The translations under genes and the position numbers were made by a program. The notes under the pieces were generated by a model. That model was not told the DNA's origin. It saw nothing but the letters and a program-made list of their open reading frames with translations, and did not search any database. From a virus, in the IMG/VR virus record IMGVR_UViG_3300028581_000051, positions 1 to 54,150 of that record: a stretch of 54,150 bases of DNA; one strand, written 5' to 3'. This document shows, in pieces, positions 15,615 through 42,710 of this stretch; position 1 is the first letter of the stretch; each line of letters opens with the position of its first letter.

Positions 15615-15637
15615 TGAGCATGTCTATAAACTGCTCC
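15615..15637 (+). promoter_or_regulatory. Conserved intergenic hairpin, copy A
   Basis: After ACCT, the stem GAGCA/TGCTC (15616-15620 with 15632-15636) closes an 11-base loop TGTCTATAAAC. It is one of six related elements in which loop bases are kept while stem pairs change together. Here the third pair of the stem is G-C where copies D and E have A-T. It lies 11 bases after a stop codon and just upstream of the CCATCTTATATGA motif. There is no U-tract, so a plain intrinsic terminator is unlikely for this copy. Confidence 0.65.
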
Positions 15638-15646
15638 ACAAAACGC

Positions 15647-15669
15647 GGAAATCTATCCATCTTATATGA
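15647..15669 (+). promoter_or_regulatory. CCATCTTATATGA motif, copy 1
   Basis: GGAAATCT, then the 13-mer CCATCTTATATGA at 15657-15669. The 13-mer recurs exactly at 19958-19970 and 39901-39913, each time after a GGAAnTCT block and shortly before a gene start. A TATAT-rich core suggests a promoter, but no TTGACA-like -35 box sits at the right distance. It could be a second promoter class or a regulator site. It is 62 bases upstream of the start at 15732. Confidence 0.5.
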
Positions 15670-15731
15670 AAGGCTCTCTAAGAGTCTCTAACCGTACCTT
15701 GGATGAGGTACTCAACAGGAGGAATCCTAAA

Positions 15732-16046
15732 ATGTTTGCTGCTATCAAAGACCGCGTTGGCGACGCTCTTCACGCCCTGTTCTGTCGTCAAGAAGCTGCT
15801 GATGTCGTGATCGTCTATCTGGCGAAACCGAATACGCACGTCATGGCGGTCTACCAATGTGATTATCTGGTGGCCACTTACACCATCGGCAACGTGGAAC
15901 TTCTGCAAAAGGAGTTCCGCAAGCGTAACGGTGAAATGCGCCACTTCCTGTGGAAGCTGACAGCCAAGCATCCGATCATGATTGTCGAGGCGGAGACTCC
16001 TCGGAATCTGTCGGACCTGCTGGTTGACGGCGTTCCTGCCCTTTAA
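15732..16046 (+). CDS. Hypothetical protein
   Basis: A 104-residue protein starting at MFAAIKDRVGDALHALF. I chose the ATG at 15732 because a strong AGGAGG box lies 7-8 bases upstream, although the frame is open back to 15666. It is a soluble mixed alpha/beta sequence. Codon choice is GC-rich (CTG, ATC, CGC, CCG), unlike the AGA/CTT-rich tail genes, which suggests strong expression. The family is unknown. Confidence 0.72.
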   Translation: MFAAIKDRVGDALHALFCRQEAADVVIVYLAKPNTHVMAVYQCDYLVATYTIGNVELLQKEFRKRNGEMRHFLWKLTAKHPIMIVEAETPRNLSDLLVDGVPAL

Positions 16047-16065
16047 TCCTGGAGAGGGTACTGCT

Positions 16066-16224
16066 ATGGTCTGGAAAGATCTGATCACTTACATCGTGAC
16101 CATTCGCTGGCTTAACCACCACGAAGTCTTCACGATCGACGCTACGGACTACGAAGAGCTTTTCAAGAAGCTCGTTGACAAGGGTCTCATCGGGGCTCAA
16201 GGTATCGACATCGAGTTCTACTAA
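16066..16224 (+). CDS. Small hypothetical protein
   Basis: A 52-residue protein beginning MVWKDLITYIVTIRW. The start at 16066 follows a GGAGAG box by 8-9 bases; the longer open frame from 15982 merely runs through the preceding gene. The sequence is a short beta-alpha unit with an acidic end (GIDIEFY). It shares the GC-rich codon style of the preceding gene and is probably cotranscribed with it. Function unknown. Confidence 0.68.
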   Translation: MVWKDLITYIVTIRWLNHHEVFTIDATDYEELFKKLVDKGLIGAQGIDIEFY

Positions 16225-16237
16225 CTACAATCAGCCC

Positions 16238-16260
16238 TGGACATGGCTTTAAACTGTCTA
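16238..16260 (+). promoter_or_regulatory. Conserved intergenic hairpin, copy B
   Basis: After AGCCC, a six-pair stem (TGGACA with TGTCTA, one G-T wobble) closes the loop TGGCTTTAAAC. The stem differs from copies D and E at two positions, and pairing is kept on both sides. It is followed by the pyrimidine-rich run CTTCTTTTCTTTTAATTTTT, so this copy could also act as a weak terminator. Confidence 0.65.
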
Positions 16261-16294
16261 CTTCTTTTCTTTTAATTTTTGATTGGAGACTAAC

Positions 16295-16380
16295 ATGAAA
16301 TAGACACCTCAGGTAGAGTAGAATGTGCCACCACGTTTCAACTTCTCGGTTGGGCTATCTGGACTGACCTTTCACCCTTT
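16295..16380 (+). other. Likely frameshifted 5' end of the following gene
   Basis: A good ribosome site (GGAG, 6 bases) precedes ATGAAATAG, which reads as Met-Lys-stop. In the neighbouring frame the reading is open from here straight into the gene at 16381 and looks coding (IDTSGRVECATT, then LLGWAIW). One extra A in the AAA run would give ATGAAAATAGAC and join the two. Either one base was lost (a real mutation or a sequencing slip) or there is a frameshift at codon 2. Confidence 0.55.
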
Positions 16381-16668
16381 GTGCAGGGCTACATCGAGGC
16401 TCTGCTTGAAAGCCTTTGCCCTGAAGAGGACGGCTCACGAGCTATGAGGCTTCCTGCTTTTACAGATCTTGCACCTGAGACTTTTAAGCGGATCCTTGAA
16501 GACTGCGAGGCGTGGCGTAAGACTTACCCAAACGTTAGTCACTGTAAACGGGGCGGTGCAAGCTTCTGGCGTCTTCGCTCCGAGCAGCTAGTCAAACGGT
16601 CAGCCTTCCCACCACTTGCCAGCTATTTGGGCAATGACGCCCTTATATACTTTGGAGAAAGTAGATGA
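16381..16668 (+). CDS. Hypothetical protein, probably truncated by an upstream frameshift
   Basis: A 95-residue reading frame from a GTG that has no ribosome site before it (CTTTCACCCTTT). The natural start is more likely the ATG at 16295, out of frame by one base, which would give about 124 residues. The sequence is soluble, with Pro-Glu-Thr and Trp residues around the middle (LAPETFKRILEDCEAWRKTY). The stop overlaps the next ATG (ATGA). Family unknown. Confidence 0.6.
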   Translation: MQGYIEALLESLCPEEDGSRAMRLPAFTDLAPETFKRILEDCEAWRKTYPNVSHCKRGGASFWRLRSEQLVKRSAFPPLASYLGNDALIYFGESR

Positions 16669-16847
16669 AAAAGCGTTTTAAGATCGTTATAGAGTTCGAA
16701 GGTGATATCGACATGGTTCCTGGCTGGGGTGACAACACCGCAGACTGGGTCAGGATGATCGCTCGAGACTTCGAACGGCAAACCCACTACAACACCAGTG
16801 CAAAGGTGATCTCGGAGGAGATTACCAGCGTAGAAATAAAGGATTGA
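16665..16847 (+). CDS. Small hypothetical protein
   Basis: A 60-residue protein with an ATG overlapping the previous stop and a GGAGAAAG ribosome site upstream. The basic start MKKRFKIVIEFEGD suggests a first beta strand, and the rest is helical. No motif is recognised. The tight spacing on both sides supports it as part of the small-gene operon. Confidence 0.68.
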   Translation: MKKRFKIVIEFEGDIDMVPGWGDNTADWVRMIARDFERQTHYNTSAKVISEEITSVEIKD

Positions 16848-16849
16848 TT

Positions 16850-16951
16850 ATGGAAAAGTTTAACCCAGCTATTGAGCGATTTATTTCTTGGCTAATGTCT
16901 GCCGGGATGACTCGCCAAGCTGCAATCAACCGTATGCGTCAAGGATCTTAA
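16850..16951 (+). CDS. Tiny hypothetical protein (33 aa)
   Basis: ATG at 16850, seven bases after an AAAGGA box and two bases after the previous stop. The product MEKFNPAIERFISWLMSAGM plus 13 more residues looks like an amphipathic helix with a basic end (NRMRQGS). The ribosome site and spacing match real neighbours, so it is likely translated. Function unknown. Confidence 0.5.
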   Translation: MEKFNPAIERFISWLMSAGMTRQAAINRMRQGS

Positions 16952-16982
16952 TCACGGCCGACCAAATCCTAAGGTAGGTCTT

Positions 16983-17015
16983 ATGAAAGCTTTCAAGAAC
17001 TTACACAACCTTTAA
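16983..17015 (+). CDS. Possible 10-residue leader peptide
   Basis: ATG with an AAGGTAGG box upstream encodes MKAFKNLHNL and stops 15 bases before the next gene. It could be a leader that couples translation, or the remnant of a lost gene. Only the ribosome site supports it. Confidence 0.2.
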   Translation: MKAFKNLHNL

Positions 17016-17030
17016 CTTGGAGATCTGATA

Positions 17031-17360
17031 ATGTATCTCGATACCACCCAAGTCGCCAAAGCCGCTCTCAAAGCTTATAAAGAGGGTAGACTCTCAGCTC
17101 AAGGCCCTACGCCTGAGTGCGCATACCGGGATAGTAGTGGCCGCCCTTGCGCAATCGGAGCCGCAATTCCTGATAAACTCGCCGAGGTTCTAACAGGTTC
17201 TATCTTCGCCATCATCTCCACCAGGGGCTGGAGGACCAACAACATTCAAGGACTTTCCATGCTGCAAGCAGCCCATGATGATTGGGTTTGCGGCCCTAAG
17301 TCTCGCTACCGCGAAGAAGATTTTGTGAAAGTCGCTGTGATGCTGGCAGGAGGAGTTTAA
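17031..17360 (+). CDS. Cysteine-motif paralog 1 (CAYR...GRPCAIGAAIPD family)
   Basis: A 109-residue protein with a GGAG box before its ATG. It has the pattern ECAYRDSSGRPCAIGAAIPD in the middle and LQAAHDDW near the end. The same layout (C-x-YR, G-x-x-CA-x-G, IPD/IPN, then LQ-x-x-HD) recurs in the products at 18321 and 18704, and a looser version in the one at 17363. The paired cysteines could bind metal or form a structural core. The family is common in phages but its function is not known to me. Confidence 0.75.
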   Translation: MYLDTTQVAKAALKAYKEGRLSAQGPTPECAYRDSSGRPCAIGAAIPDKLAEVLTGSIFAIISTRGWRTNNIQGLSMLQAAHDDWVCGPKSRYREEDFVKVAVMLAGGV

Positions 17361-17362
17361 CT

Positions 17363-17695
17363 ATGACTGACCAAATCAAACACGCTACGCTTCAAGAGTG
17401 GATCGAGGCTCTTGAGAGTGGAAAGTACCAACAGCATCGCAAGGAACTTACACCAAATAGCATTCCCATTGAAAGCACAGATACTTTGTGCTGCTTGGGA
17501 GTTTATTGTAAGATTTCTGGATACACAGGTAACTCAGCCGATCTCCCCTATTTTGCTATTGTGGACGAGAATGTAGAAGTACGGGTAGCCGATTGCATTA
17601 TTTGGAACGATTACGATGATCTAACCTTCCCTGAAATCGCCCAAAAGCTTCGGGAACGTTATCTCAACAGGGGTACCCAAAATGCCACGCTTTAA
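17363..17695 (+). CDS. Cysteine-motif protein, distant paralog
   Basis: A 110-residue protein starting at an ATG after AGGAG, two bases past the previous stop. The pattern TLCCLGVYCKISGY resembles the cysteine-rich centre of the neighbouring family, and the C-terminal half includes DLTFPEIAQKLRERY. It probably arose with the other three from an old duplication. Function unknown. Confidence 0.72.
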   Translation: MTDQIKHATLQEWIEALESGKYQQHRKELTPNSIPIESTDTLCCLGVYCKISGYTGNSADLPYFAIVDENVEVRVADCIIWNDYDDLTFPEIAQKLRERYLNRGTQNATL

Positions 17696-17852
17696 ATTTG
17701 AGAGCGCTTCCCAGCAAGGTTACGTTCTCAACACTCTCACTAGACTTCTGCAAGATATTAATGAACGAAGTCATTCTACTGCTGAAACCCAGAACCTTCG
17801 CCTGGCTATCAAGTGTGTCCTGGATGCGGAAGTTGAAGGAGAGTTCTCATGA
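17682..17852 (+). CDS. Small hypothetical protein (56 aa)
   Basis: The ATG at 17682 overlaps the end of the previous gene by 14 bases, and the stop overlaps the next start (ATGA). The product begins MPRFKFESASQQGYVLNTL and is one or two soluble helices. The coupled spacing on both sides and natural codon usage make this frame far more likely than the competing one from 17698. Function unknown. Confidence 0.6.
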   Translation: MPRFKFESASQQGYVLNTLTRLLQDINERSHSTAETQNLRLAIKCVLDAEVEGEFS

Positions 17853-18040
17853 AGAAGTTCTGGCTGGTATACTGTCCAAGGTACTCAGTTATGTATCGGA
17901 TGCCCAATAGAATAGAAGCCGCCTGTGAAGCAGACCGGCTCGCCAGAAAAGAGCCTGGGAAAACTTTCGTAGTTCTTGAGGCGGTAGCCTCTTATCAAGT
18001 CACGCCCTCAGAAGTTGTTGTTAAACTGCTGGATTCCTGA
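17849..18040 (+). CDS. Small hypothetical protein
   Basis: A 63-residue protein, coupled to the previous gene (ATGA) with a GAAGGAGAG ribosome site. It begins MKKFWLVYCPRYSVMY and has a charged helix in the middle (EAACEADRLARKEPGK). The pattern of a beta strand followed by a helix starting with Ala and Glu is common in small phage proteins that pair with larger partners. No specific role can be assigned. Confidence 0.68.
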   Translation: MKKFWLVYCPRYSVMYRMPNRIEAACEADRLARKEPGKTFVVLEAVASYQVTPSEVVVKLLDS

Positions 18041-18042
18041 CT

Positions 18043-18324
18043 ATGGAGATCTCAAGTTGTTCTAACTGTAGTGAGTATCACTACTCTGCCTGCACCCTCT
18101 ACGCTTTTTACCCAAAAGTCCTTCATTACTGCAGTTCTCACACGCCAGCCTACGGTACTACCACACTGCCTGAGGCTTTCTTGCTGGGAGCTTTTGCTAA
18201 TGAGCGTTGGTTGCTTACAAGCAAACAAATCTCAGAATGGGAGACTGTGGGAGAAGTGGTAGAGATTCTTAACTTTCTGGAAATCTTTGATTCCTGGGCG
18301 TCTATCCTAACAGGAGACCTATGA
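18043..18324 (+). CDS. Small cysteine-rich hypothetical protein
   Basis: A 93-residue protein with cysteines clustered in the N-terminal third: CSNC, then single cysteines at YSAC and HYC. The CxxC could bind zinc with the later cysteines. The C-terminal half is a soluble helix pair. The ribosome site is weak. The stop overlaps the next ATG. Confidence 0.66.
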   Translation: MEISSCSNCSEYHYSACTLYAFYPKVLHYCSSHTPAYGTTTLPEAFLLGAFANERWLLTSKQISEWETVGEVVEILNFLEIFDSWASILTGDL

Positions 18325-18707
18325 TGACACCCCAAGAAATCTTTGACACCGTTGCCACTCACCTGTTTACACAAGGTGAGCGTGCTACTGACAATTATAC
18401 TTGCGTGTATCGTACACCTGAGGGTCTCAAGTGTGCGGTTGGCTGTCTTATCCCTAACAAGCTCTATCGAGTGTCTATGGAAGGAACTGTGCTCGATGGT
18501 CTCCTGCGGGATACAACATGCCAGCTTCCCAAGTATTTTAGAGAGAACAGAGAGCTTCTAAGAAAGCTACAGACTGCTCATGACAATCAGGACAACTGGA
18601 GCAGTTCCCGGCACATGCGTAAGCGCCTGGAAGAGATTGCTAAGGAGCACTACCTCAACTACGATATACTTAAAACTCTTAGTTTCTCATGGGATATAGC
18701 TCAATGA
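18321..18707 (+). CDS. Cysteine-motif paralog 2
   Basis: A 128-residue protein. Two ATGs in a row (18321, 18324) follow AGGAGA; the second has the better spacing. The N-terminal TPQEIFDTVATHLFTQG is nearly the same as in the product at 18704. The centre reads CVYRTPEGLKCAVGCLIPN and the later part LQTAHDNQDNW, matching the family in the product at 17031. A tandem duplicate follows directly. Function unknown. Confidence 0.76.
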   Translation: MMTPQEIFDTVATHLFTQGERATDNYTCVYRTPEGLKCAVGCLIPNKLYRVSMEGTVLDGLLRDTTCQLPKYFRENRELLRKLQTAHDNQDNWSSSRHMRKRLEEIAKEHYLNYDILKTLSFSWDIAQ

Positions 18708-19066
18708 CACCTCAACAAATTTTCGATACCGTCGCCACCCACCTGTTTACTCAAGGACACCCAGCCAAAAACCCGGATGGGTTCTGCGTATACCGCGCAT
18801 ACAGCGGGGATAAGTGCGCAGTTGGGTGTCTGATTCCTGACAGTGAGTATGAACCCCAGATGGAGAGTCAAAGCGTTAAAGAGTTAGTAATTCGATTTAA
18901 GACTCCTCTGTATTTTGCAGAGAACTTGGAGTTCCTTACTGAGTTGCAGAAGGTTCATGATTTCGTCGAATCTTGGACCTCTGAACAAACTCTGAAGCTT
19001 GCGTTATACAGAGTCGCTAGTGATTATAAGCTAAACCCTCACGTCTTGATCGGTTTAACTCTCTAA
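18704..19066 (+). CDS. Cysteine-motif paralog 3
   Basis: A 120-residue protein. I chose the ATG at 18704, which overlaps the previous stop, because the product then begins MTPQQIFDTVATHLFTQG, aligning with its upstream paralog; a start at 18689 would add five residues. It carries CVYRAYSGDKCAVGCLIPD and LQKVHDF. The two tandem copies have diverged strongly outside the N-terminus and the cysteine core, so the duplication is not recent. Function unknown. Confidence 0.74.
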   Translation: MTPQQIFDTVATHLFTQGHPAKNPDGFCVYRAYSGDKCAVGCLIPDSEYEPQMESQSVKELVIRFKTPLYFAENLEFLTELQKVHDFVESWTSEQTLKLALYRVASDYKLNPHVLIGLTL

Positions 19067-19084
19067 AGAATAGGAAGTAAGCTA

Positions 19085-19423
19085 ATGTTGACTCGTAAAC
19101 TTTTCTCGTCTGGTTATCTCAGGGCAAATCCTGGCATCAAAATTCTTGTAGAGGTAACTATCTCTAAATACCAACCTGATCTCAGAAGCTCGAATCTTGG
19201 AGTAGACGCCAATGGTGAGTATCTTGGCGTTATTCCAGTGAGTTCCGTAGTTGACTTGCTTGCAGAACCTTTCAAACCAGGTGACCTAGTGAAGTACGAT
19301 GAGATTAGCCGCGGGAAAGTCGTCTATGTTGCTCCCGACGGTATGGTCGCTGTTATCTGGGGTGATAACAGTAAAGGTTGGTGGGAACCTGATAAGCTTG
19401 AAAGGGACTTTGATGTCATTTAA
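19085..19423 (+). CDS. Hypothetical protein
   Basis: A 112-residue protein with an AGGAAG box before its ATG. The C-terminal half has a pattern like a small beta-barrel: FKPGDLVKYDEISRGKVVYV, then VAVIWGDNSKGWW. Sequences of the form GD-V-Y-G-V-V followed by V-W-DN occur in SH3-like barrels of small phage proteins. That comparison is only suggestive. Confidence 0.7.
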   Translation: MLTRKLFSSGYLRANPGIKILVEVTISKYQPDLRSSNLGVDANGEYLGVIPVSSVVDLLAEPFKPGDLVKYDEISRGKVVYVAPDGMVAVIWGDNSKGWWEPDKLERDFDVI

Positions 19424-19811
19424 CCTGTTCAAACGCGACTACAAAGCTCTTCGGCAGATCAATGGAGCAGTCTCAGGACCACTCGCGCGATTGTTCTACC
19501 TTAGAGGCATGTATGTAATGTATGCCGAGTCTAACGAGGTCTCTCTTAGAAACTTCGTTCCCATCTTTCGTGCCGCCAATGCCCTTGAGATTTGTGTTCT
19601 ATACTTTGAGTATACTGAGTCCCACATCAAGGGGCTTGAGATGCTTACCAACGAGGAATTCAGTAAGTTGCCTCGCCGGTATCAACTAGAAGCTGTAAAG
19701 CTAGAGAGTCTCTTCAACAACATCAATCTCTGGAGTCGCAACCTGTGCCCTGGTCGAAACGCCACAAGCTCCTCAAACTTGTCGCCTCTAACGCGAATGT
19801 CCTTACACTAG
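19413..19811 (+). CDS. Hypothetical protein
   Basis: A 132-residue protein starting MSFNLFKRDYKALRQ. The ATG at 19413 follows AAAGGG and overlaps the previous gene by 11 bases; the open frame extends to 19299 but runs inside that gene. The product is soluble and helical (FVPIFRAANALEICVLYFEY), with a Ser/Asn-rich tail. The last 22 codons overlap a different gene in another frame. Function unknown. Confidence 0.66.
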   Translation: MSFNLFKRDYKALRQINGAVSGPLARLFYLRGMYVMYAESNEVSLRNFVPIFRAANALEICVLYFEYTESHIKGLEMLTNEEFSKLPRRYQLEAVKLESLFNNINLWSRNLCPGRNATSSSNLSPLTRMSLH

Positions 19812-20489: not shown

Positions 20490-20699
20490 ATGCCTGCAAA
20501 GACTTTTATACGAAGTCTCGCTGAAGGCTTTGTAGTATCCATCATACTGGTAGCCCTAGCATTTACGCTAGCCGTTGGCTTTCTAATGCCAGCGTTTGGG
20601 CCTCTTAAAATCCCAAGGCGAATTATCTACAACTTCCAGCTCTTATTTTTGAGCTTGTGGGTGATATTCACCACCTACTTTTCTAACAAGAAGCCCTAG
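20490..20699 (+). CDS. Small membrane protein (69 aa)
   Basis: The ATG follows the previous stop with no gap. It has two clear hydrophobic segments (VVSIILVALAFTLAVGFL and FQLLFLSLWVIFTTYF) separated by a basic loop (KIPRR) and a Lys-rich end, a hairpin topology with both ends likely inside the cell. The stop codon lies within the first of three tandem hairpin elements. Confidence 0.66.
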   Translation: MPAKTFIRSLAEGFVVSIILVALAFTLAVGFLMPAFGPLKIPRRIIYNFQLLFLSLWVIFTTYFSNKKP

Positions 20700-20719
20700 A
20701 CATGGCTAAAATCTGTCTA
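20697..20719 (+). promoter_or_regulatory. Conserved intergenic hairpin, copy C
   Basis: After AGCCC, a perfect six-pair stem TAGACA/TGTCTA closes an 11-base loop TGGCTAAAATC. Two stem pairs differ from copy D (A-T for G-C, then G-C for A-T), both compensated. Its 5' arm overlaps the stop of the preceding gene. It is the first of three copies within about 110 bases upstream of the RNA polymerase unit. Confidence 0.7.
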
Positions 20720-20728
20720 CCACAGCCC

Positions 20729-20751
20729 TGAACATGGCTCTAAACTGTTCA
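20729..20751 (+). promoter_or_regulatory. Conserved intergenic hairpin, copy D
   Basis: After AGCCC, a perfect six-pair stem TGAACA/TGTTCA closes the loop TGGCTCTAAAC. It is followed by ATCTTTTCTCTTATTTTT. It is nearly identical to copy E 58 bases downstream (AGCCCTGAACATGGCTC and the rest of the element). Confidence 0.7.
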
Positions 20752-20786
20752 TCTTTTCTCTTATTTTTATCATTTTAAATAGCCCT

Positions 20787-20807
20787 GAACATGGCTCTAA
20801 ACTGTTC
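20787..20807 (+). promoter_or_regulatory. Conserved intergenic hairpin, copy E
   Basis: Stem GAACA/TGTTC closes the loop TGGCTCTAAAC; the outer sixth pair of copy D is lost (T opposite T). It lies 50 bases before the small gene that is coupled to the RNA polymerase. Confidence 0.7.
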
Positions 20808-20813
20808 TGAGTT

Positions 20814-20856: not shown

Positions 20857-20991
20857 ATGATAGTACTTGCAGGAATACTCGTGATGGGAGCCTTGGTGCT
20901 CTGCTATAGACTTCTGAACGGTATTCTTGCAAGCGTGTTTGTGAGCCTGGTAATCTCTATCGGGCTAGGTTTTATTCTGAGAGATAGATAA
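20857..20991 (+). CDS. Tiny membrane protein coupled to RNA polymerase (44 aa)
   Basis: An ATG at 20857, in a purine-rich leader (AAAGAAAAGAA), encodes MIVLAGILVMGALVLCYRLL and a second hydrophobic stretch (GILASVFVSLVISIGLGFIL) ending in RDR. Two membrane passes are likely. The stop overlaps the start of the RNA polymerase (TAATG), so it may set polymerase translation. Role unknown. Confidence 0.6.
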   Translation: MIVLAGILVMGALVLCYRLLNGILASVFVSLVISIGLGFILRDR

Positions 20992-23222
20992 TGCGTCAGG
21001 CATTGATAGCGTTATTGGATAAAAGACGTAAAGTAGAAATAGATCCTCGAAGTCCTCTTAAGTTCCTCATAACGGCCCCTGTAGAGTCTTATATAGACAT
21101 GGCAATCTCCATCGTCTATTTATACACACGTCCAAAGAAAGGTTTTAAAAAGCAAGCTACATACCTGACAGAAGTGATCTCTGCTTTGGGCCATGGAGTG
21201 CGCAATAAGCTTAAACTCAAACGCGACTCTTCAGCTGCAGCAAAGACAGGTGCATTCATCCTGTACTCGTTTGAGCAGTTAGGTCTTCTTGAAGTCACTC
21301 TGGGTCAGGGCTCTAAAGGTCACAACGCTTACATAATTCAAGTTACTAACGATGATTTGATTTGTGCTCTTTGGAATGCTTTGACAATCACTCAAGCTGA
21401 AAAGCTTCCAAGTCTTACTCCGTTTGCTCCCTGGGTTAGTACCAAGCATGAGACAGGTGCTACACTTGTCAAAACTGGTAATAAACGAGTCCTGGAGAGT
21501 CTCCAACCTGATACTCATCCAATTGTATTTTCTTGTGTAAACAAAGCTCAGACCCAAGGTTGGCGTGTTAATAAAGACATCTACGATATTTATAGATGGG
21601 CCCTCGATAACAAAACAGAAGCTTTCTCAGACATTTGGGACCAACACAATCCTGAAGCTAGGACCACCAAACTTAGAGAAGCTAAAGCGATCATTACTAT
21701 TGCTGACAAGTTTGTTGACAAAACTTTCTATCATCTTTACTACTACGATTTTAGAGGTCGTAAGTACCCAACAACGGCTTACCTCCATGAACAAGGCTCA
21801 GATGCCGCAAGAGGTCTACTTTTAAGAGCTGATCAAAAGGCTTTAGGCAAAGATGGTGCTAAATGGTTATACATCTATCTTGCCAATCTTTGGGCAGGCG
21901 ATGCAGATAGAGCTGATGGTCTAAAAACTGACAAACTCCCACTCAGGGACAGAGTTCATTGGACTATGAGCAATGCTGCTGTATTGTTAAGCTATGCTAC
22001 AGATCCTAAAACTAATCAGGGCTGGATGCAAGCTGACAAGCCTTGGCAATTCTTAGCAGCTTGTTTTGAATTCAACCGTCTTGTAGAATATTGCAGCACA
22101 GGTCGTATGACTAATGGTTTTGAATCTTCTTTAGAATGCTATTTAGACGGTAGCAATAATGGATCTCAGCATCTTTCAGCCCTTACGCTTGATGAAGAAA
22201 CTGCGCCTCACGTAAACCTTGTCCCGCTCGCTTTTCCTGGTGATCTTTATAACTACGTCGCTAAACATGTTTGGGAAAGAATTGATGAGTACTGTGAAGA
22301 TTTTTCTTTAGAAGAAAAAGACCAGATAGACGTCTTTATCAGCGAACTCCTTAAATATAAGACCTCAATCCATGCTCTTCCTCAAAACTCAGATGTGCGT
22401 AAATCTTTGATTGAAGACTTAAAAGTCTTTAGGAACTCAAATAAAGAGCTTTTAACACTTGCCGCACCGGTGTTCTGGAAGAAGCTTAGCAGCCCTAAGG
22501 ATCGTAGGAAGGTAGTCAAACGTAATGTTATGACTCTCCCTTACGGTGGTACTCCTTACGGTCTCGGTGAGCAACAGATATCGGATGCACCCAAGCATGG
22601 TATTGAACTTCTCAATGGTCTTGAACAACGTTGGGGTGCTTACATGGGAAGAGAAGTCTACGAGAGTTGTCGAGTGTCGCTTAAACGCCCAATGCAGCTT
22701 CTTACTGTGTTTGAAAAAGCAGGTAAAGCAGCAGAGGACCGAGGCGAGTTCTTATCCTGGACAGTTCCTGTAACAAACTTTCCGGTTGTCCAAAACTATA
22801 CTCAGGGTAAAGTTAAAAAGATTTGGGTACAATATGGACCTCCTGAAGGAGAGCGCCTGGGTACAGGGTACTACACAAACACTCTTCAACTTGCTGTGTG
22901 TTTTATTGAAGATGTAGTTCCTTCAAAGAACAAGCAAGGTCAATCTGCTAGCCCAAATGCTATCCACAGTCTGGATGCAGCCCATCTTGCTATCACAGTC
23001 CATGAAGCTGAATTCTCTATAACAACTATTCATGACTCTTATGGAGCCCTGCTAGGTGATGTGGAGGGCTTATTTATACTTGTGAGAGAAACCTTTGTTG
23101 AGCTTTATGAGACCAATCCTTTAGAACAGCTCATGAAAGATATTCAGGGTGATGCTAGTCAAATCATGATTGGTAGCTTGGATATCAGAGCTGTACTTGA
23201 ATCTGACTATTGCTTTGTGTGA
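20991..23222 (+). CDS. Single-subunit (T7-like) DNA-dependent RNA polymerase
   Basis: A 743-residue protein with all the core motifs of phage RNA polymerases. YDFRGRKYP is at residues 252-260 (T7 has DWRGR). The motif A equivalent is LDGSNNGSQHLSAL with catalytic D386 (T7 D537). Motif B is VVKRNVMTLPYGG with K510 and Y518 (T7 K631, Y639). Motif C is TIHDSYG with D682 (T7 D812). NAIHSLDAAHL precedes motif C as in T7. It should transcribe the phage's own promoters; a candidate promoter motif occurs four times in this window. It is about 140 residues shorter than T7 RNA polymerase, and the shortfall is mostly before motif A, the part that in T7 binds promoter DNA and nascent RNA. The start overlaps the stop of the preceding gene. 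Confidence 0.96.
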   Translation: MRQALIALLDKRRKVEIDPRSPLKFLITAPVESYIDMAISIVYLYTRPKKGFKKQATYLTEVISALGHGVRNKLKLKRDSSAAAKTGAFILYSFEQLGLLEVTLGQGSKGHNAYIIQVTNDDLICALWNALTITQAEKLPSLTPFAPWVSTKHETGATLVKTGNKRVLESLQPDTHPIVFSCVNKAQTQGWRVNKDIYDIYRWALDNKTEAFSDIWDQHNPEARTTKLREAKAIITIADKFVDKTFYHLYYYDFRGRKYPTTAYLHEQGSDAARGLLLRADQKALGKDGAKWLYIYLANLWAGDADRADGLKTDKLPLRDRVHWTMSNAAVLLSYATDPKTNQGWMQADKPWQFLAACFEFNRLVEYCSTGRMTNGFESSLECYLDGSNNGSQHLSALTLDEETAPHVNLVPLAFPGDLYNYVAKHVWERIDEYCEDFSLEEKDQIDVFISELLKYKTSIHALPQNSDVRKSLIEDLKVFRNSNKELLTLAAPVFWKKLSSPKDRRKVVKRNVMTLPYGGTPYGLGEQQISDAPKHGIELLNGLEQRWGAYMGREVYESCRVSLKRPMQLLTVFEKAGKAAEDRGEFLSWTVPVTNFPVVQNYTQGKVKKIWVQYGPPEGERLGTGYYTNTLQLAVCFIEDVVPSKNKQGQSASPNAIHSLDAAHLAITVHEAEFSITTIHDSYGALLGDVEGLFILVRETFVELYETNPLEQLMKDIQGDASQIMIGSLDIRAVLESDYCFV

Positions 23223-37740: not shown

Positions 37741-37746
37741 CACCTC

Positions 37747-38554: not shown

Positions 38555-38563
38555 GAGGTTTAG

Positions 38564-38809: not shown

Positions 38810-39164
38810 ATACGACCCTTATCCGTATGCTATTGGCTCTGAAGAATTCCCTGGGTTCTCTAAACTTATCGAAGAGCTGGGTGAACTTAATCAAGTAATT
38901 GGTCAAATTCTTGCACGTGGCAGTCAGCTAGGTGATTTTCATAATCACAAACTTGCAACCAGACTCGTGGAAGAGATGGCTGATACCTCAGCTGCTATCC
39001 TGCTTGTATTAGACGAAAACAAGCTGAACAATAAAGGCTTTATCGCTCGTCGTAACTACAAGTATAATACATACCGGCGTTGGCAGGCTCAAGGTATTGA
39101 TGCTTGGAAAGGTTACGAAGACGAGTTCTTGTCTACACCTGAGGGTTTTCCTCTTGGTGAATAA
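38793..39164 (+). CDS. MazG-like NTP pyrophosphohydrolase
   Basis: A 123-residue protein from the ATG at 38793 (AGAGG box); the longer frame from 38571 runs inside the preceding gene. KLIEELGELNQVIGQIL and, about 35 residues later, LVEEMADTSAAILLVL give the EExxE...ExxD metal site of MazG/all-alpha NTP pyrophosphatases. It would hydrolyse NTPs or ppGpp-related signals, or clean the nucleotide pool. The tRNA-Thr gene starts three bases after its stop. Confidence 0.8.
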   Translation: MTDAIKYDPYPYAIGSEEFPGFSKLIEELGELNQVIGQILARGSQLGDFHNHKLATRLVEEMADTSAAILLVLDENKLNNKGFIARRNYKYNTYRRWQAQGIDAWKGYEDEFLSTPEGFPLGE

Positions 39165-39167
39165 TAC

Positions 39168-39243
39168 GCCGCTTTAGCTCAGCTGGTAGAGCAACGGTTT
39201 TGTAAACCGTGGGTCGCAGGTTCGAATCCTGTAGGCGGCACCA
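39168..39243 (+). tRNA. tRNA-Thr (TGT)
   Basis: A 76-base cloverleaf. Acceptor GCCGCTT pairs with AGGCGGC; D-arm AGCTCAGCTGGTAGAGC; anticodon loop TTTGTAA with anticodon TGT; T-arm with GGTTCGAATCC; encoded CCA at 39241-39243. It reads ACA codons, which are common in this phage. Confidence 0.96.
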
Positions 39244-39261
39244 TTTTTAGAAAGACTTAAA

Positions 39262-39612
39262 ATGAACCTTAAGACTGCTAATAGGCGTAGACGTAAAACT
39301 AGTAGCGACTACAGATACTCTCAATGGCTCAAGCAGTTTAAACTTGGAGCTATTGTAGAGAGTTGCTCCTTACACCCGATTCGTATTACTCGGTTTAACA
39401 CTAAGCCCTACGGAGGCTTTGTTGATGGTGAGTCGCTCCTAGATGGCAGTCATCAAAGTTGCTCTATCCGACACTGCGGCGTAGATTTCTTAGCACCTTG
39501 GGAAGTCAAGAAAAAGCTTAAGCTTTGGAACAGTGGAGGTGAAAAGGCTCTTATTGCTGATTACTATGGAAGTAAAGAGGCTGCAGACGCCTTTATCAAA
39601 ACCTGGAGATGA
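39262..39612 (+). CDS. Basic hypothetical protein
   Basis: A 116-residue protein placed between two tRNA genes. The N-terminus is very basic (NRRRRKTSS) and the rest mixes aromatic and basic residues (SIRHCGVDFLAPWEVKKKLK), so nucleic-acid binding is possible. No family recognised. The ribosome site is weak (AGAAAGACTTAAA). Confidence 0.7.
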   Translation: MNLKTANRRRRKTSSDYRYSQWLKQFKLGAIVESCSLHPIRITRFNTKPYGGFVDGESLLDGSHQSCSIRHCGVDFLAPWEVKKKLKLWNSGGEKALIADYYGSKEAADAFIKTWR

Positions 39613-39614
39613 TT

Positions 39615-39702
<88 letters not shown>

Positions 39703-39727
39703 ATTAACATAAGAGAAAGTTGACTGA

Positions 39728-39886
39728 ATGAACTTGCTATTCATCGCTAAGGGTCCTAACCGCACACCCGTCGTAGTTGTCGGAGCTAATAACGACCGGG
39801 TTGTATATCACTACGATCATGAGAAGCGTAGACACTATGGTTGCGTGTCTCGTAAGTTCTTTGAAGAGAATTACGTCAAGGTTTAA
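39728..39886 (+). CDS. Small hypothetical protein (52 aa)
   Basis: ATG at 39728 behind AGAAAG. The product begins MNLLFIAKGPNRTPVVVVGA and continues basic and aromatic (HYDHEKRRHYGCVSRKFFEE). A small beta-sheet protein is likely. Position between a tRNA and the CCATCTTATATGA motif leaves no competing gene. Function unknown. Confidence 0.55.
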   Translation: MNLLFIAKGPNRTPVVVVGANNDRVVYHYDHEKRRHYGCVSRKFFEENYVKV

Positions 39887-39891
39887 AGGCC

Positions 39892-39913
39892 GGAATTCTC
39901 CCATCTTATATGA
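39892..39913 (+). promoter_or_regulatory. CCATCTTATATGA motif, copy 3
   Basis: GGAATTCTC followed by CCATCTTATATGA (39901-39913), 19 bases before the GTG start at 39933. The exact 13-mer is shared with 15657 and 19958. Confidence 0.5.
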
Positions 39914-39932
39914 TAACCATGGAGGTTGATCA

Positions 39933-40433
39933 GTGTTTAACCAAAAGCCTACCAAACAAATTCCTACTACATTTGCTCTAGGCCAGGAGCTAATAGATGA
40001 CCTTACAGGTTTCTGTGGGTATGCCTATCAGCTACTCTATCAAGATAACGGCAATCTAAGGATCTCCCTTCAACCTAAGAGCAACAGCCCGAGCAAGCTT
40101 GAAGAAGCAATCAGTTTTGATATTCACACGCTGAGTATCGTCAGTGGTGGCTACTCTGACAGGATCCCTCCTGTTACCCCGTTCAAGTACATGTTCGGAG
40201 ACCGCGTGAAAGATAGGCTCACGGGTTTCAATGGGATCATCGTTTGTAGAGCTTACTTTATAAATGGGTGTGCCTTTTACGAAGTTGTCAGTGAGAAGCT
40301 TGATAAAGATCAGCGCCCGGTGTGCTCTTGGATCCCTGAGCGGTACATTGAGCTGGTTAAAATCAGAGCAATATCTCCTCCTGAAAAGACAAAGACAGGT
40401 GGACCTCCCACTAAAGTTTCGTTCCGAGGCTAG
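39933..40433 (+). CDS. Hypothetical protein
   Basis: A 166-residue protein starting at a GTG with GGAGG eight bases upstream. The C-terminal half has FGDRVKDRLTGFNGIIVCR followed by YFINGCAFYEVVSEK, a GD-x-V-x-D-x-x-TG-x-x-G-x-V/I pattern common to a family of uncharacterised phage proteins that fold like small barrels. An earlier DDLTGFCGYAYQ may be a degenerate repeat of the same unit. Function unknown. Confidence 0.73.
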   Translation: MFNQKPTKQIPTTFALGQELIDDLTGFCGYAYQLLYQDNGNLRISLQPKSNSPSKLEEAISFDIHTLSIVSGGYSDRIPPVTPFKYMFGDRVKDRLTGFNGIIVCRAYFINGCAFYEVVSEKLDKDQRPVCSWIPERYIELVKIRAISPPEKTKTGGPPTKVSFRG

Positions 40434-40440
40434 ATTAACC

Positions 40441-40517
40441 GCGCCCATAGCTCAACTGGTTAGAGCCGTCAGCTCATAACTGACTGGTTACAGGTTCAAG
40501 TCCTGTTGGGCGCACCA
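40441..40517 (+). tRNA. tRNA-Met (CAT)
   Basis: A 77-base cloverleaf. Acceptor GCGCCCA/TGGGCGC, anticodon loop CTCATAA with CAT, T-loop GTTCAAGTC, encoded CCA. The first pair is G-C, so it is not an initiator. A tRNA-Ile2 with modified C34 cannot be excluded. Confidence 0.94.
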
Positions 40518-40536
40518 ACTCTGTGGAGACAGAAAA

Positions 40537-40836
40537 ATGACTATCGAAGTACCTCTCAGCAAAGCTCCTAGTAAAATTGCTGAAAAAGCTGCAATGGACC
40601 TCACGTTACTGGTAACTAACTTTACTAAAGACCCTCTTGAATCTGTCGATATTCTTTTGTTGTCAGCTGTAGGTTACAGTGTGGCAGGTTCAGTGTACGA
40701 TAGTCAGTCGACTGGAGAGTCTCGTTTGGACTATATACGTGAGCGACTTGAGTATCTTCATGAATTTCTTATAGGACGTATGGAGAGTGACCCTAAAGCA
40801 CTAGAGCTCGCTGAACTTATAAGGGGATCCCGATGA
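40537..40836 (+). CDS. Hypothetical protein, paralog of the product at 41233
   Basis: A 99-residue helical protein. DILLLSAVGYSVAG and RLDYIRERLEYLHEFLIGR match the layout of the downstream 78-residue protein (DALLLGLASFLRAQ, RLDEFLEYI). It is the first part of a duplicated two-gene block in 40537-42424. Its stop overlaps the next start. Function unknown. Confidence 0.7.
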   Translation: MTIEVPLSKAPSKIAEKAAMDLTLLVTNFTKDPLESVDILLLSAVGYSVAGSVYDSQSTGESRLDYIRERLEYLHEFLIGRMESDPKALELAELIRGSR

Positions 40837-41240
40837 ACGAAATTCTTAAGTATCAAGGTGAATTATACCTAAAGGCTAAGCCTGATGAGTCACTTGCCAA
40901 GACACATTACTTTTCGGTGATGTTGGATGCTGGTTGGATTCTTGCTACGCGGCTGTCTGATGGTAAACTCACTTTTATTGATCCACCAGTTGCAAAACCT
41001 GATGAGTTATACTGTATTGTATGGGTTCGTAAAAACAAGGTCGAGCTTACAGGTGTGTTCGAGAACGACATTGACATCCTTTACGACATCTGGATAGATC
41101 TCGCACCATACGAAAAAGCAAATTTGCTTTTCTATAATATAACTAAAGGTAAGACAAAGGTTGAAACTTTCGTGCGTTCACCCCCAATCCCTTGGGCCTC
41201 CACTAAAACTTACATTGAAGGACTTTACAAGAATGTCTGA
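40833..41240 (+). CDS. Hypothetical protein, GE-x-K paralog family member 1
   Basis: A 135-residue protein related to those at 41606 and 42017. Shared landmarks are GELYLKAK near the start, WIL followed by DGKL, LTGVF-x-ND with ILY in the middle, and a C-terminal helix ending GLYKNV. The three copies differ at most positions, so the duplications are old. It overlaps the preceding gene by four bases and the next by eight. Function unknown. Confidence 0.72.
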   Translation: MNEILKYQGELYLKAKPDESLAKTHYFSVMLDAGWILATRLSDGKLTFIDPPVAKPDELYCIVWVRKNKVELTGVFENDIDILYDIWIDLAPYEKANLLFYNITKGKTKVETFVRSPPIPWASTKTYIEGLYKNV

Positions 41241-41469
41241 ACCTATGACACCCCGCGCAGAAGAAGCCTCAGCAGGCTTTATCAAAGTACTACAGAACCT
41301 TGGAACTGACGAAAGAGAGTCTACGGACGCACTCCTGCTGGGATTAGCTAGTTTTCTAAGAGCTCAAGAACGGCATTTTGGGTCTGAGTTGGGTGAACTC
41401 GCACGGGAAGCACTCATCGACCGTCTTGATGAGTTCCTTGAATATATCAGAGAGCAAGAACGCGTATGA
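41233..41469 (+). CDS. Hypothetical protein, paralog of the product at 40537
   Basis: A 78-residue helical protein from the ATG at 41233, which overlaps the previous gene; the frame extends to 41161 inside that gene. ESTDALLLGLASFLRAQ and LIDRLDEFLEYIREQERV align with the product at 40537. The C-terminal motif is found again in the tiny chimeric gene that follows. Function unknown. Confidence 0.68.
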   Translation: MSEPMTPRAEEASAGFIKVLQNLGTDERESTDALLLGLASFLRAQERHFGSELGELAREALIDRLDEFLEYIREQERV

Positions 41470-41606
41470 GTCGCTACATCACGCACAATGGGGATGTTCG
41501 GGTTAAGACCTACATCGGGTCTGACTTGGCTGAAATTTCGCGCACTGTGATCATCAAGCGTCTTGACGAATTCGTCGAATTTATTAAAGGAAGGGAGCTC
41601 GTATAA
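41466..41606 (+). CDS. Tiny chimeric gene (46 aa)
   Basis: ATG overlapping the previous stop (ATGA), stop overlapping the next start (TAATG). The product joins pieces of two neighbouring families: the start YITHNGDVRVKTYI resembles the start of the product at 42017 (HLIDNGEVWIKTTY), and the end RLDEFVEFIKGRELV resembles the end of the product at 41233 (RLDEFLEYIREQERV). It looks like the fused remains of one duplicated gene pair. Clean coupling on both sides suggests it is still translated. Confidence 0.6.
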   Translation: MSRYITHNGDVRVKTYIGSDLAEISRTVIIKRLDEFVEFIKGRELV

Positions 41607-42016
41607 TGGATAAGTATCATATCGAAGGCGATGAAGTTTTTATTAAGACTAGCTACCGTCCAATTCACCCGCTGAGTCGTAGTAAGGTTCTGGCCGAGCA
41701 TGCACACAATCTCTACTGTAATATCAAGACCGGTGAGCTCAAAGTTCTTCCAACTAAACCGATGGCCTTCAAAGTTTATGGGAAGTACGGCAGAGCTTCG
41801 CAAAATCTGTCCGGTATTTATACTACGGACCAGAATGCAATCTATAAGTTCTACGAGTTACTCACGAACGACTATGCCGAATTCACTCTAGAAGCTTATG
41901 GGTACCGTGACGGATTTTGGGCCAAGAAGGTTTTGGTAATAGATCCCACTCGTCGTTGGAGCCTGATCAAGGAAGATTTGCTCAAGTTTTACGAAGAATA
42001 CGGAAGGGTTAGCTAG
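41606..42016 (+). CDS. Hypothetical protein, GE-x-K paralog family member 2
   Basis: A 136-residue protein with EGDEVFIKTSYRPIHPL at the start, NIKTGELKVLPTKP, LSGIYTTDQNAIYKFY, and a helical end DLLKFYEEYGRVS. These match landmark for landmark the product that starts directly after its stop. Function unknown. Confidence 0.72.
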   Translation: MDKYHIEGDEVFIKTSYRPIHPLSRSKVLAEHAHNLYCNIKTGELKVLPTKPMAFKVYGKYGRASQNLSGIYTTDQNAIYKFYELLTNDYAEFTLEAYGYRDGFWAKKVLVIDPTRRWSLIKEDLLKFYEEYGRVS

Positions 42017-42424
42017 ATGGCGAAGCACCTTATTGATAATGGGGAAGTCTGGATCAAGACCACCTATGACCTAACCGGTCCACTCGGGAAGAGTTCGCTT
42101 CTGGCAACTTACGGAAATGGTGACTGGATTCTTTGTTGCAATATCGCAACCGGAGAACTCAAGTACCTCAAGAACCCGGAAGCGCCTGTAAAGCCAAGTT
42201 ACGCTTTCAGGCTGGCATTCCCTGACTCCAACTTTTTCAATCTAACTGGTGTGTATGGGAATGATCAGTCAGTTCTCTACAAACATCGCCAAGAAGGTTG
42301 TAAGCTGTATGTAATGAAGAGGGCTGAAGTCTTTGCCAGTTTTGTACTCCCGAGAAACGCCACCTGGCTGAATGACCTCAAACCCAAGCTGATTGACCTT
42401 TACAAAACATATGGAAGCGTGTAA
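42017..42424 (+). CDS. Hypothetical protein, GE-x-K paralog family member 3
   Basis: A 135-residue protein with NGEVWIKTTYDLTGPLGKS, GDWILCCNIATGELKYLKN, LTGVYGNDQSVLYKHR and a terminal helix KLIDLYKTYGSV. It begins immediately after the stop of its paralog. A strong hairpin follows at 42445. Function unknown. Confidence 0.72.
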   Translation: MAKHLIDNGEVWIKTTYDLTGPLGKSSLLATYGNGDWILCCNIATGELKYLKNPEAPVKPSYAFRLAFPDSNFFNLTGVYGNDQSVLYKHRQEGCKLYVMKRAEVFASFVLPRNATWLNDLKPKLIDLYKTYGSV

Positions 42425-42444
42425 CAATGAAAAAGATCTCGAGT

Positions 42445-42474
42445 AGTACCCTAGGTAGTTTCACCTAGGGTACT
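42445..42474 (+). terminator. Strong 11-pair hairpin, terminator-like
   Basis: AGTACCCTAGG pairs perfectly with CCTAGGGTACT around the eight-base loop TAGTTTCA. No U-run follows; instead a second small inverted repeat (CTCAC/GTGAG) and GGGACCCTCC come next, and AGGGT of the first hairpin could alternatively pair with ACCCT downstream. It separates the duplicated block from the zinc-finger gene. Confidence 0.5.
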
Positions 42475-42517
42475 CTCACTATACCGGTGAGGGACCCTCC
42501 TTTAATACGAGGTTTAA

Positions 42518-42673
42518 ATGTCTCTCGCGAACAAGCGGAAAAAGGACCAGGAGATGGCCCAGCAGATGAAGCGGCTGGGGATCGAGCGCAATCACACCAA
42601 TTGCCCGATCTGTCATCACACGACGTCTCTGAGCAATCTTCGGTTCCACCTGACGACCTGTCAGGGCCGCTAA
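42518..42673 (+). CDS. Small zinc-finger protein (51 aa)
   Basis: ATG at 42518 behind GAGG. After a highly charged helix (MSLANKRKKDQEMAQQMKRL) comes CPICHHTTSLSNLRFHLTTC: a CxxC pair, then H and C, which fits one zinc ion. Codon use is GC-rich and differs from its neighbours. The overlapping 67-residue frame from 42487 is a shadow. It probably binds DNA or RNA; target unknown. Confidence 0.65.
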   Translation: MSLANKRKKDQEMAQQMKRLGIERNHTNCPICHHTTSLSNLRFHLTTCQGR

Positions 42674-42687
42674 TAACACTACAGTCC

Positions 42688-42710
42688 TGAGCATGACTTT
42701 AAAAGGCTCG
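42688..42710 (+). promoter_or_regulatory. Conserved intergenic hairpin, copy F
   Basis: After AGTCC, the stem TGAGC/GCTCG (first pair wobble) with an inner A-G mismatch closes the loop TGACTTTAAAA. It has the same length and loop style as the five other copies, with the A-T to G-C change in the fourth stem pair also seen in copy A. It sits nine bases before the tRNA-Leu gene. Confidence 0.55.

What the first reader, a model, noticed from the sequence alone, without database searches (positions are those of the whole stretch)
15615..42710. Six intergenic hairpins with a conserved 11-base loop and covarying stems
Elements at 15615, 16238, 20697, 20729, 20787 and 42688 share AGYCC, then a 5-6 pair stem around an 11-base loop of the form TGGCTnTAAAC. 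Three stem positions change in a compensated way: G-C, G-T or A-T at pair 2; A-T or G-C at pair 3; A-T or G-C at pair 4. The loop stays nearly fixed. All six are in gaps between genes on the coding strand. Compensating changes with a kept loop argue for a selected RNA (or single-stranded DNA) structure, not a DNA operator. Only some copies have a U-run, so simple termination does not explain them. Possible roles are a binding site for a phage regulator, an RNA processing site, or a hairpin promoter as in phage N4. I know of no described element with this consensus.
Basis: partly seen in the sequence, partly recalled or inferred. Interest (0 to 1): 0.85.

Follow-up and report, generated by a model that had tools for sequence, protein, structure and literature searches.

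The report
Widespread phage RNA pseudoknot between genes
Six short stretches between genes of this phage each fold, as RNA, into the same compact knot that recurs in phages of many bacterial phyla, probably as a roadblock that protects the ends of viral messages; the searches made here found no described family that matches it.

Summary
The six elements are real but are not hairpins. The window holds 6 copies, all on the coding strand, against 0.27 per shuffle.

The fold recurs in many unrelated phage contigs. In loci fetched with stem 1 left free, 86 of 108 hits have all four pairs, in 30 combinations (shuffle mean 12, maximum 23). In copies fetched through a neighbouring protein, plus the window's six, 96.8% of pairs hold and the covariation score is 0.537 against 0.207 shuffled.

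It most often starts 5-6 nt after a stop codon; others lie just before a Shine-Dalgarno sequence or tRNA. Named carriers infect Synechococcus, Nostoc, roseobacters, Staphylococcus, Lactobacillus, Streptococcus, Mycobacterium, Arthrobacter; a Vibrio phage and crAss-like phages also carry it. Rfam and ten literature searches gave no match.

Mechanism is inferred: an intercistronic exonuclease roadblock that sets stable mRNA ends, chiefly the 3' end of the upstream gene (0.42). N4-type promoter, stop-codon readthrough and an RNase-J-only block fit poorly.

The parts
15610..15637 (+). Pseudoknot copy 1: S1 AGAC/GTCT, L1 C(T), S2 GAGCA/TGCTC, L3 ATAAAC; starts 6 nt after the stop codon of ORF 15382-15603
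16233..16260 (+). Pseudoknot copy 2: S1 AGCC/GGCT, S2 GGACA/TGTCT (plus outer T-A); starts 8 nt after the stop of ORF 16066-16224; followed by a pyrimidine/U-rich stretch
20692..20719 (+). Pseudoknot copy 3: S1 AGCC/GGCT, S2 AGACA/TGTCT; L3 AAAATC is aberrant; contains the TAG stop (20697-20699) of ORF 20490-20699
20724..20751 (+). Pseudoknot copy 4: S1 AGCC/GGCT, S2 GAACA/TGTTC; followed by a U-rich stretch
20781..20808 (+). Pseudoknot copy 5: same as copy 4 except the last base
42683..42710 (+). Pseudoknot copy 6: S1 AGTC/GACT, S2 GAGC/GCTC with an A.G at the innermost pair (AAAAGG subtype); 9 nt upstream of tRNA-Leu
   Evidence: subtype also in 13 of 117 distinct hits
42720..42805 (+). tRNA-Leu (anticodon taa) directly downstream of copy 6
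   Evidence: ARAGORN; Rfam tRNA at 42720-42802
15382..15603 (+). ORF (73 aa) ending just before copy 1
16066..16224 (+). ORF (52 aa) ending just before copy 2
20490..20699 (+). ORF (69 aa) whose stop codon lies inside copy 3
20991..23222 (+). Single-subunit (T7-like) RNA polymerase gene downstream of copies 3-5
   Evidence: (phrog_414, E 1.8e-117)

Best explanation
Shown: each element is a 28-nt H-type pseudoknot in the RNA of the coding strand (S1 4 bp, L1 C-U, S2 5 bp with an unenforced sixth U-A, L2 usually one U, L3 usually 6 nt of the form nUAAAC), under selection in many phages and placed in intercistronic gaps. Inferred: it works as an exonuclease roadblock. A processed or terminated phage transcript is trimmed until the nuclease meets the knot, so the message on the ribosome side of the knot is kept. 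Copies just upstream of a Shine-Dalgarno sequence, as before scaffold-capsid genes, may shield a 5' end instead. In the window the copies would separate message segments before the RNA polymerase gene, before the tRNA-Leu and after two small genes.
For: Structure: 86 of 108 hits in loci fetched with S1 left free have 4/4 S1 pairs in 30 combinations (shuffle mean 11.9, maximum 23 of 2000); 53 of 87 hits in loci fetched with S2 left free have 5/5 S2 pairs (shuffle mean 20.5, maximum 29) (larger mixed sets). 70 sequences (64 fetched through a neighbouring protein, plus the window's 6): 96.8% of cells paired, covariation 0.537 against 0.207 shuffled and at most 0.133 when slid. RNA: in S2, G-U 43 against A-C 16. 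Position: of 207 copies with an upstream stop within 150 nt, 58 start 5-6 nt and 102 start 4-10 nt after it; in gaps of 130 nt or more, 42 of 91 lie within 15 nt of the stop and 16 of 91 within 40 nt of the start. Loci fetched by protein: copy after the gene in 75 of 80 DUF932, 34 of 40 Hsp20 and 18 of 78 ribonucleotide reductase loci; copy within 330 nt before it in 46 of 79, 0 of 40 and 0 of 77. In the DUF932 and Hsp20 loci printed, promoter-like sequences (TTGACA-N17-TATGAT in L432, TATAAT in the Hsp20 loci) lie between the copy and the next gene, so a transcript starting there would not contain the copy. tRNAs start 2-10 nt after copies in NMeng1, Molivia, cr124_1, six ARAGORN cases and the window. 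Small folded RNAs can block exonucleases: passages of PMC5760640 report a flaviviral RNA halting bacterial RNase J1.
Against: No nuclease or RNA-end data were available. The downstream gene is conserved too in the DUF932, Hsp20 and RNR sets (2, 1 and 1 single-linkage classes), and those query proteins were chosen because a copy follows them. In 14 of 14 loci fetched by a Staphylococcus-phage capsid protein the copy lies upstream of the capsid region with differing upstream sequence, which points to the downstream side or to a neutral boundary. Gene orientation shows no asymmetry between the two sides. About a quarter of copies have a terminator-like U-run (69 of 286 against 12 of 286). A 28-nt knot with a 4-bp stem may be too weak to stop RNase R or PNPase. 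Eight records related by RNA polymerase lack it.
Confidence: 0.42

Rival explanations
1. 5'-end shield: the knot blocks 5'-3' exonucleases (RNase J) and stabilises the downstream message, like a viral Xrn1-resistant RNA.
For: Copies sit upstream of scaffold and capsid genes in D6E, phig1e, Javan271, StB12 and KC5a and in 14 of 14 capsid-fetched loci. Flaviviral xrRNA halts RNase J1 (passages of PMC5760640). The published plant-virus coremin motif (PMC10520033) also has a small hairpin whose loop starts with C and a spacer containing UUAAAC.
Against: RNase J (TIGR00649) passes its cut-off in 0 of 25 genomes of the class of a Saprospirales bin although that bin carries a copy, and crAss-like phages (hosts Bacteroidota, recalled) and a Vibrio phage carry it (lack of RNase J in Vibrio is recalled). 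Copies next to tRNAs and copies upstream of a promoter are not explained.
Confidence: 0.17
2. Pseudoknot-type transcription terminator or pause signal: the knot replaces the hairpin of an intrinsic terminator.
For: U-runs (at least 5 T in a 6-nt window near the 3' edge) follow 69 of 286 copies against 12 of 286 upstream control windows; several DUF932 copies are followed by A or C and then U6 or more; G is rare just after the knot (2-6% at positions 29-36).
Against: About three quarters of copies lack such a U-run; most copies lie between co-directional neighbours (202 of 320 co/co), often inside what look like operons, and many are directly before a start codon or tRNA.
Confidence: 0.14
3. 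Ribosome element: the knot, close after the stop codon, blocks scanning or re-initiation by post-termination ribosomes, or stimulates recoding.
For: Spacing of 5-8 nt from the A-site codon is that of recoding pseudoknots (recalled). PMC10520033 (abstract and first two of six parts) reports that coremin motifs impede scanning ribosomes in a eukaryotic lysate.
Against: Readthrough is not supported: extensions of 30 codons or more occur in 24 of 126 in frame 0, 14 of 126 and 23 of 126 in the other two. Copies before tRNAs, and copies in non-coding gaps 129-288 nt upstream of DUF932, do not need a ribosome role.
Confidence: 0.1
4. Protein-binding site for a phage or host regulator, as the T4 gene 32 pseudoknot is for gp32.
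For: A phage pseudoknot of about 28 nt with UUAAA elements is the gp32 operator (passages of PMC535899). Several unpaired bases are nearly invariant.
Against: Single-strand-binding genes are rare neighbours (phrog_112 in 3 of 121 upstream and 3 of 126 downstream proteins), and hosts and neighbouring genes are too varied for one phage regulator; a universal host factor remains possible.
Confidence: 0.1
5. DNA element: N4-type hairpin promoter, replication or packaging signal, or a linker for recombination between phage modules.
For: Staphylococcus-phage loci look mosaic around the copy: L624 joins the upstream sequence of one type to the downstream sequence of the other. The window phage encodes a single-subunit RNA polymerase.
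Against: Both stems change in compensated fashion; G-U exceeds A-C in S2; the fold occurs in phages with no annotated relation to this polymerase and is absent from eight polymerase relatives.
Confidence: 0.04

Closest known systems
T4/RB69 gene 32 operator pseudoknot
   Same: Phage mRNA pseudoknot of about 28 nt in an intercistronic region, with UUAAA-type sequence near it (passages of PMC535899)
   Different: One site per phage, upstream of gene 32 and bound by gp32; here 1-8 copies per contig beside unrelated genes, usually just after a stop codon, in phages of many phyla; no sequence family link was tested
Coremin-type Xrn1-resistant RNA (xrRNA-C) of plant and fungal RNA viruses
   Same: Tiny motif: short hairpin whose loop begins with C, followed by a spacer that contains UUAAAC; found in intergenic and 3' untranslated regions (PMC10520033)
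   Different: Coremin has a 4-nt loop in its original form and needs a second hairpin; no loop-to-downstream stem is described in the parts I read; RNA viruses of eukaryotes, not DNA phages
STAXI RNA motif (RF01728)
   Same: Repeated small pseudoknots near phage-type genes (passages of PMC2864571)
   Different: Tandem arrays with UUCG tetraloops in Enterobacteriales; no Rfam match here
REP-type intercistronic stabilisers of enterobacteria (recalled)
   Same: Structured intercistronic elements that protect upstream mRNA from 3'-5' exonucleases (recalled)
   Different: Long imperfect hairpins of bacterial chromosomes, not a pseudoknot of phages
Type III antitoxin pseudoknot RNAs (ToxI, CptI, TenpI; recalled)
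   Same: Compact H-type pseudoknots in mobile elements
   Different: Tandem arrays directly upstream of a toxin gene; here scattered copies, with no toxin gene recognised next to them

Membership tests
H-type RNA pseudoknot (structural class) | Two stems that interleave, both supported by compensatory change | tested here: met
   S1 86 of 108, S2 53 of 87, shuffle maxima 23 and 29; score 0.537 against 0.207; but two of its five measures do not exceed the shuffles (pairs with double change 7 against 5.8, 90/500; further pair types 15 against 16.4, 476/500)
H-type RNA pseudoknot (structural class) | Folded in solution (probing or 3D structure) | not testable with these tools
   The folding tools used here predict nested structures only
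Any Rfam 15 family | Covariance-model match at or above the gathering score | tested here: not met
   only tRNAs. (permissive): only sub-threshold snoRNA models. Rfam models cannot score pseudoknots well, so a miss is weaker than usual
Coremin xrRNA | Conserved hp1, loop rule and spacer followed by a second hairpin | tested here: not met
   By reading: loop-to-downstream stem S2 instead of a second hairpin; no alignment was made
Coremin xrRNA | Blocks a 5'-3' exonuclease | not testable with these tools
   Needs an in vitro degradation assay
Intrinsic terminator | Stable stem directly followed by a U-tract | tested here: not met
   Met by a minority only: 69 of 286 copies with at least 5 T in a 6-nt window; TTTT within 10 nt in 89 of 320
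Stop-codon readthrough pseudoknot | In-frame extension after the stop codon | tested here: not met
   No in-frame excess: 24, 14 and 23 of 126 extensions of 30 codons or more in the three frames
N4-type hairpin promoter | Restricted to phages with the matching polymerase, recognised as single-stranded DNA | tested here: not met
   Found in many phages unlike this one; absent in 8 of 8 polymerase relatives; G-U excess in S2
T4 gene 32 operator | Next to a single-strand-binding protein gene | tested here: not met
   phrog_112 in 3 of 121 upstream and 3 of 126 downstream proteins scanned
Type III toxin-antitoxin RNA | Adjacent ToxN/CptN/TenpN toxin gene | tested here: inconclusive
   No toxin among the 25 commonest PHROG families on either side; no dedicated toxin search was made

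The most novel reading that the evidence does not exclude
Phages of many bacterial phyla share a previously unlisted 28-nt RNA pseudoknot family that acts as a compact, host-independent exonuclease-resistant boundary in both directions, cutting long phage transcripts into separately stable messages; its loop and spacer resemble coremin Xrn1-resistant RNAs of eukaryotic viruses, which would make it a convergent solution in DNA phages.
Probability: 0.25. Interest if true: 0.9.

Novelty: new variant of a known kind. Interest (0 to 1): 0.75.

Why it matters
Exonuclease-resistant RNAs are known from RNA viruses of eukaryotes; a genome-wide, intercistronic counterpart in DNA phages would explain how phages with few promoters set different message levels within one transcript, and would give a 28-nt portable part for tuning bacterial mRNA. 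Even without a mechanism, the RNA family itself is strongly supported, widespread, annotated as nothing in the GenBank records examined, and short enough to test directly.

Tried and rejected
Nested hairpin as the full structure: single-sequence folding and RNAalifold recover mainly S2, which leaves the S1 changes unexplained. Sixth S2 pair (U6-A28): not enforced (69% paired, equal to chance). A fifth S1 pair: not enforced (27% against 35% expected). S2-length control with L3 free from 5 to 9: 104 of 117 distinct hits pair, tail-swapped mean 86.6 and maximum 94, so only a weak excess in that set, because S2 varies little there. G-U against A-C in S1: 9 against 7, no excess.

RNase J as sole target: weakened by Bacteroidota and Vibrio carriers. 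Host counts from BLAST were not used as a statistic: hits are dominated by clonal records (27-29 Vibrio records of one group), and below about 35 bits many are partial. E. coli genomes gave no match at E 10, a stricter test than in the smaller phage set. Whole bacterial genomes: 5 of 388 and 2 of 360, one of each being the seed genome, the other gamma hit not pairing by eye. Gene orientation on the two sides: no asymmetry. Promoter motif TATAAT within 60 nt: 20 of 303 downstream, 26 of 303 upstream, no enrichment overall. Readthrough: rejected. ssDNA or N4 promoter: rejected as above.

One search's larger S1-free and S2-free sets (113 of 137; 78 of 118) mix loci fetched by other patterns; the clean subsets are quoted instead. 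From the anchor-only set (65 unique windows) one overlapping window in L619 was left out of the alignment.
Full report
What was claimed and what is there. Reading the DNA shows that the AGNC just before the stem is complementary to the GNCT inside the loop, and that both change together: AGAC/GTCT at 15610, AGCC/GGCT at 16233, 20692, 20724 and 20781, AGTC/GACT at 42683. The unit is therefore S1(4)-C-U-S2(5)-N-S1'(4)-L3(6)-S2'(5), an H-type pseudoknot. A scan for that geometry picks out these six among 109 looser + strand candidates; with the consensus bases added only the six remain, none on the - strand, against 0.27 per shuffle (maximum 2 of 200). These rules were fitted to the copies.

Independent tests of the fold. 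Counting only loci that each scan itself brought in: S1 free, 86 of 108 with 4/4 pairs in 30 combinations, shuffle mean 11.9 and maximum 23 of 2000; S2 free, 53 of 87 with 5/5 pairs, shuffle mean 20.5 and maximum 29. A geometry scan of all loci then held (3.42 Mb, both strands) gave 287 hits against 2 in the reversed and complemented sequences together; the loci were mostly selected by the motif, so 287 is not a prevalence. Copies fetched through a neighbouring protein and located by anchor bases only, plus the window's six, gave 96.8% of cells paired, 110 cells with both sides changed (30.9 shuffled) and a covariation score of 0.537 (0.207 shuffled, 0 of 500; at most 0.133 slid). Two of the five measures of that test do not exceed the shuffles: pairs with a double change (7 against 5.8) and further pair types (15 against 16.4). 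G-U pairs outnumber A-C mismatches in S2 (43 against 16) but not in S1 (9 against 7), which favours coding-strand RNA.

Consensus and variants. C5 and AAA19-21 were required by the scan; free in that scan, and nearly invariant, are U6 (98%), A11 (99%), U12 (100%), C22 (98%), U23 (100%) and C4-G13 (96%). In some families L2 is A or C rather than U. A subtype ending AAAAGG occurs in 13 of 117 distinct hits, and the window copy at 42683 belongs to it; an L3 of 9 nt is the second commonest length (16 of 104 pairing hits) and is seen in Molivia.

Who carries it. Short-probe BLAST against GenBank phages, checked by sequence in 20 fetched records: 16 have all four S1 pairs, in 10 different combinations (SIO1, S-EIVl, NMeng1, Molivia, Labelle, Javan271, phig1e, D6E, S-H35, Vibrio phage D456 g1, StB12, KC5a, S-RIM4, ICBM1, P12053L, cr8_1); four have three (cr7_1, cr124_1, and the enterobacterial phages GJ1 and PM1, where S1 has a G.A mismatch). 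DSS3_VP1, a polymerase relative, has none in the 49 kb read. In D456 g1 the copy overlaps a small annotated ORF on the other strand, and in GJ1 and cr8_1 it lies inside or overlaps a small annotated ORF. Copies per contig range from 1 to 8: L082's 62-kb contig has 8, all on one strand, and 27 of 30 chosen carrier records have a match to a strict pattern, with zero matches to the reversed pattern. Eight records related to the window phage by RNA polymerase have none, so the element comes and goes. Bacterial genomes seldom hold it: 5 of 388 and 2 of 360, including one seed genome each; E. coli genomes gave no match.

Where it sits. Of 249 distinct copies with enough flank, 207 have an ORF stop within 150 nt upstream; 58 copies start 5-6 nt and 102 start 4-10 nt after it; 117 have a Shine-Dalgarno-preceded start within 150 nt downstream, with a peak at 18-19 nt. 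In gaps of 130 nt or more, 42 of 91 hug the stop and 16 of 91 the start. Of 320 copies, 202 lie between two co-directional ORFs and 22 inside an ORF by my simple gene calls. tRNAs follow at 2-4 nt in Molivia, NMeng1 and cr124_1, at 3-10 nt in 6 of 249 loci by ARAGORN and at 9 nt in the window. Neighbouring genes: upstream DUF932 (phrog_1221, 20 of 121 proteins scanned, of 197 collected), Hsp20 (13) and ribonucleotide reductase; downstream more diverse (126 scanned, of 196 collected).

Which side does it serve? Loci fetched by protein, not by motif: a copy follows DUF932 in 75 of 80, Hsp20 in 34 of 40 and ribonucleotide reductase in 18 of 78; it precedes them in 46 of 79, 0 of 40 and 0 of 77. 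The copies upstream of DUF932 are 129-288 nt away, and in the example read in full (L432) a TTGACA-N17-TATGAT promoter-like sequence lies between; the Hsp20 copies shown are followed by TATAAT before the next gene. These favour the upstream gene's 3' end. Against this, the downstream neighbours are conserved as well, the query proteins were picked because a copy follows them, and in 14 of 14 loci fetched by a Staphylococcus-phage capsid protein the copy precedes the capsid region while the sequence on both sides differs between types. A boundary element acting on either side is therefore the most economical reading.

Mechanism. I infer an exonuclease roadblock. The lower bound of about 5 nt from the stop codon matches a knot that a terminating ribosome need not open (recalled ribosome geometry). 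A tRNA a few nucleotides downstream supplies an RNase P cut that would leave the knot at the 3' end. U-runs after about a quarter of copies (69 of 286 against 12 of 286) suggest that some double as terminators. RNase J alone is not enough: 0 of 25 genomes of the class of a carrier bin pass the RNase J cut-off. None of this has been shown by experiment.

Known or new. Rfam: only tRNAs at gathering thresholds and nothing relevant below them. Literature: ten full-text searches of an open-licence library listed no paper describing it; subscription papers are mostly missing. From papers I saw passages of PMC2864571, PMC12191101, PMC5869530, PMC5760640 and PMC535899, and the abstract, parts 1-2 of 6 and passages of PMC10520033; the rest were listings. 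The nearest relatives in kind are the T4 gene 32 pseudoknot and the coremin Xrn1-resistant RNAs; the element fails or cannot be shown to meet their defining features.

Noticed in passing
L621-L634 (Staphylococcus-type prophage contigs), around position 1200: Two upstream and at least three downstream sequence types meet at the pseudoknot; L624 combines the upstream type of one group with the downstream type of another, as if recombination had happened at the element.
   Followed up: partly
L432 and L438, upstream of the DUF932 gene; DUF932 in L014, L065, L220, L256: DUF932 genes are often bracketed by two pseudoknots; in L432 a sigma70-like promoter lies between the upstream copy and DUF932.
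   Followed up: partly
L082 11272, 11506, 12593, 13133: The same 17-nt tail follows several pseudoknots of the eight-copy contig, so copy plus tail may spread there as a module.
   Followed up: no
L387 3001-3028 and L388 3001-3028 (enterobacterial phages GJ1 and PM1): A variant with stem 2 and all loop bases kept but a G.A mismatch in stem 1.
   Followed up: partly
L377 2959-2986 and 3001-3028; L416 1457-1484 and 1499-1526: The crAss-like phages cr7_1 and cr124_1 carry a second copy-like sequence directly upstream of the first, each with 3 of 4 stem-1 pairs.
   Followed up: no
window 42518-42673: A 51-codon frame, read by eye, ending 9 nt before copy 6, with a CPICHH...H...C arrangement that looks like a small zinc finger.
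   Followed up: no
window 6284-14191: A 2635-aa open frame next to tail genes, not compared with any library.
   Followed up: no
plasmids NZ_CP139209 2942-2968 and NZ_CP094551 2515-2542: Two small Acinetobacter plasmids match the probe at 93% and 89%; not checked for the fold.
   Followed up: no
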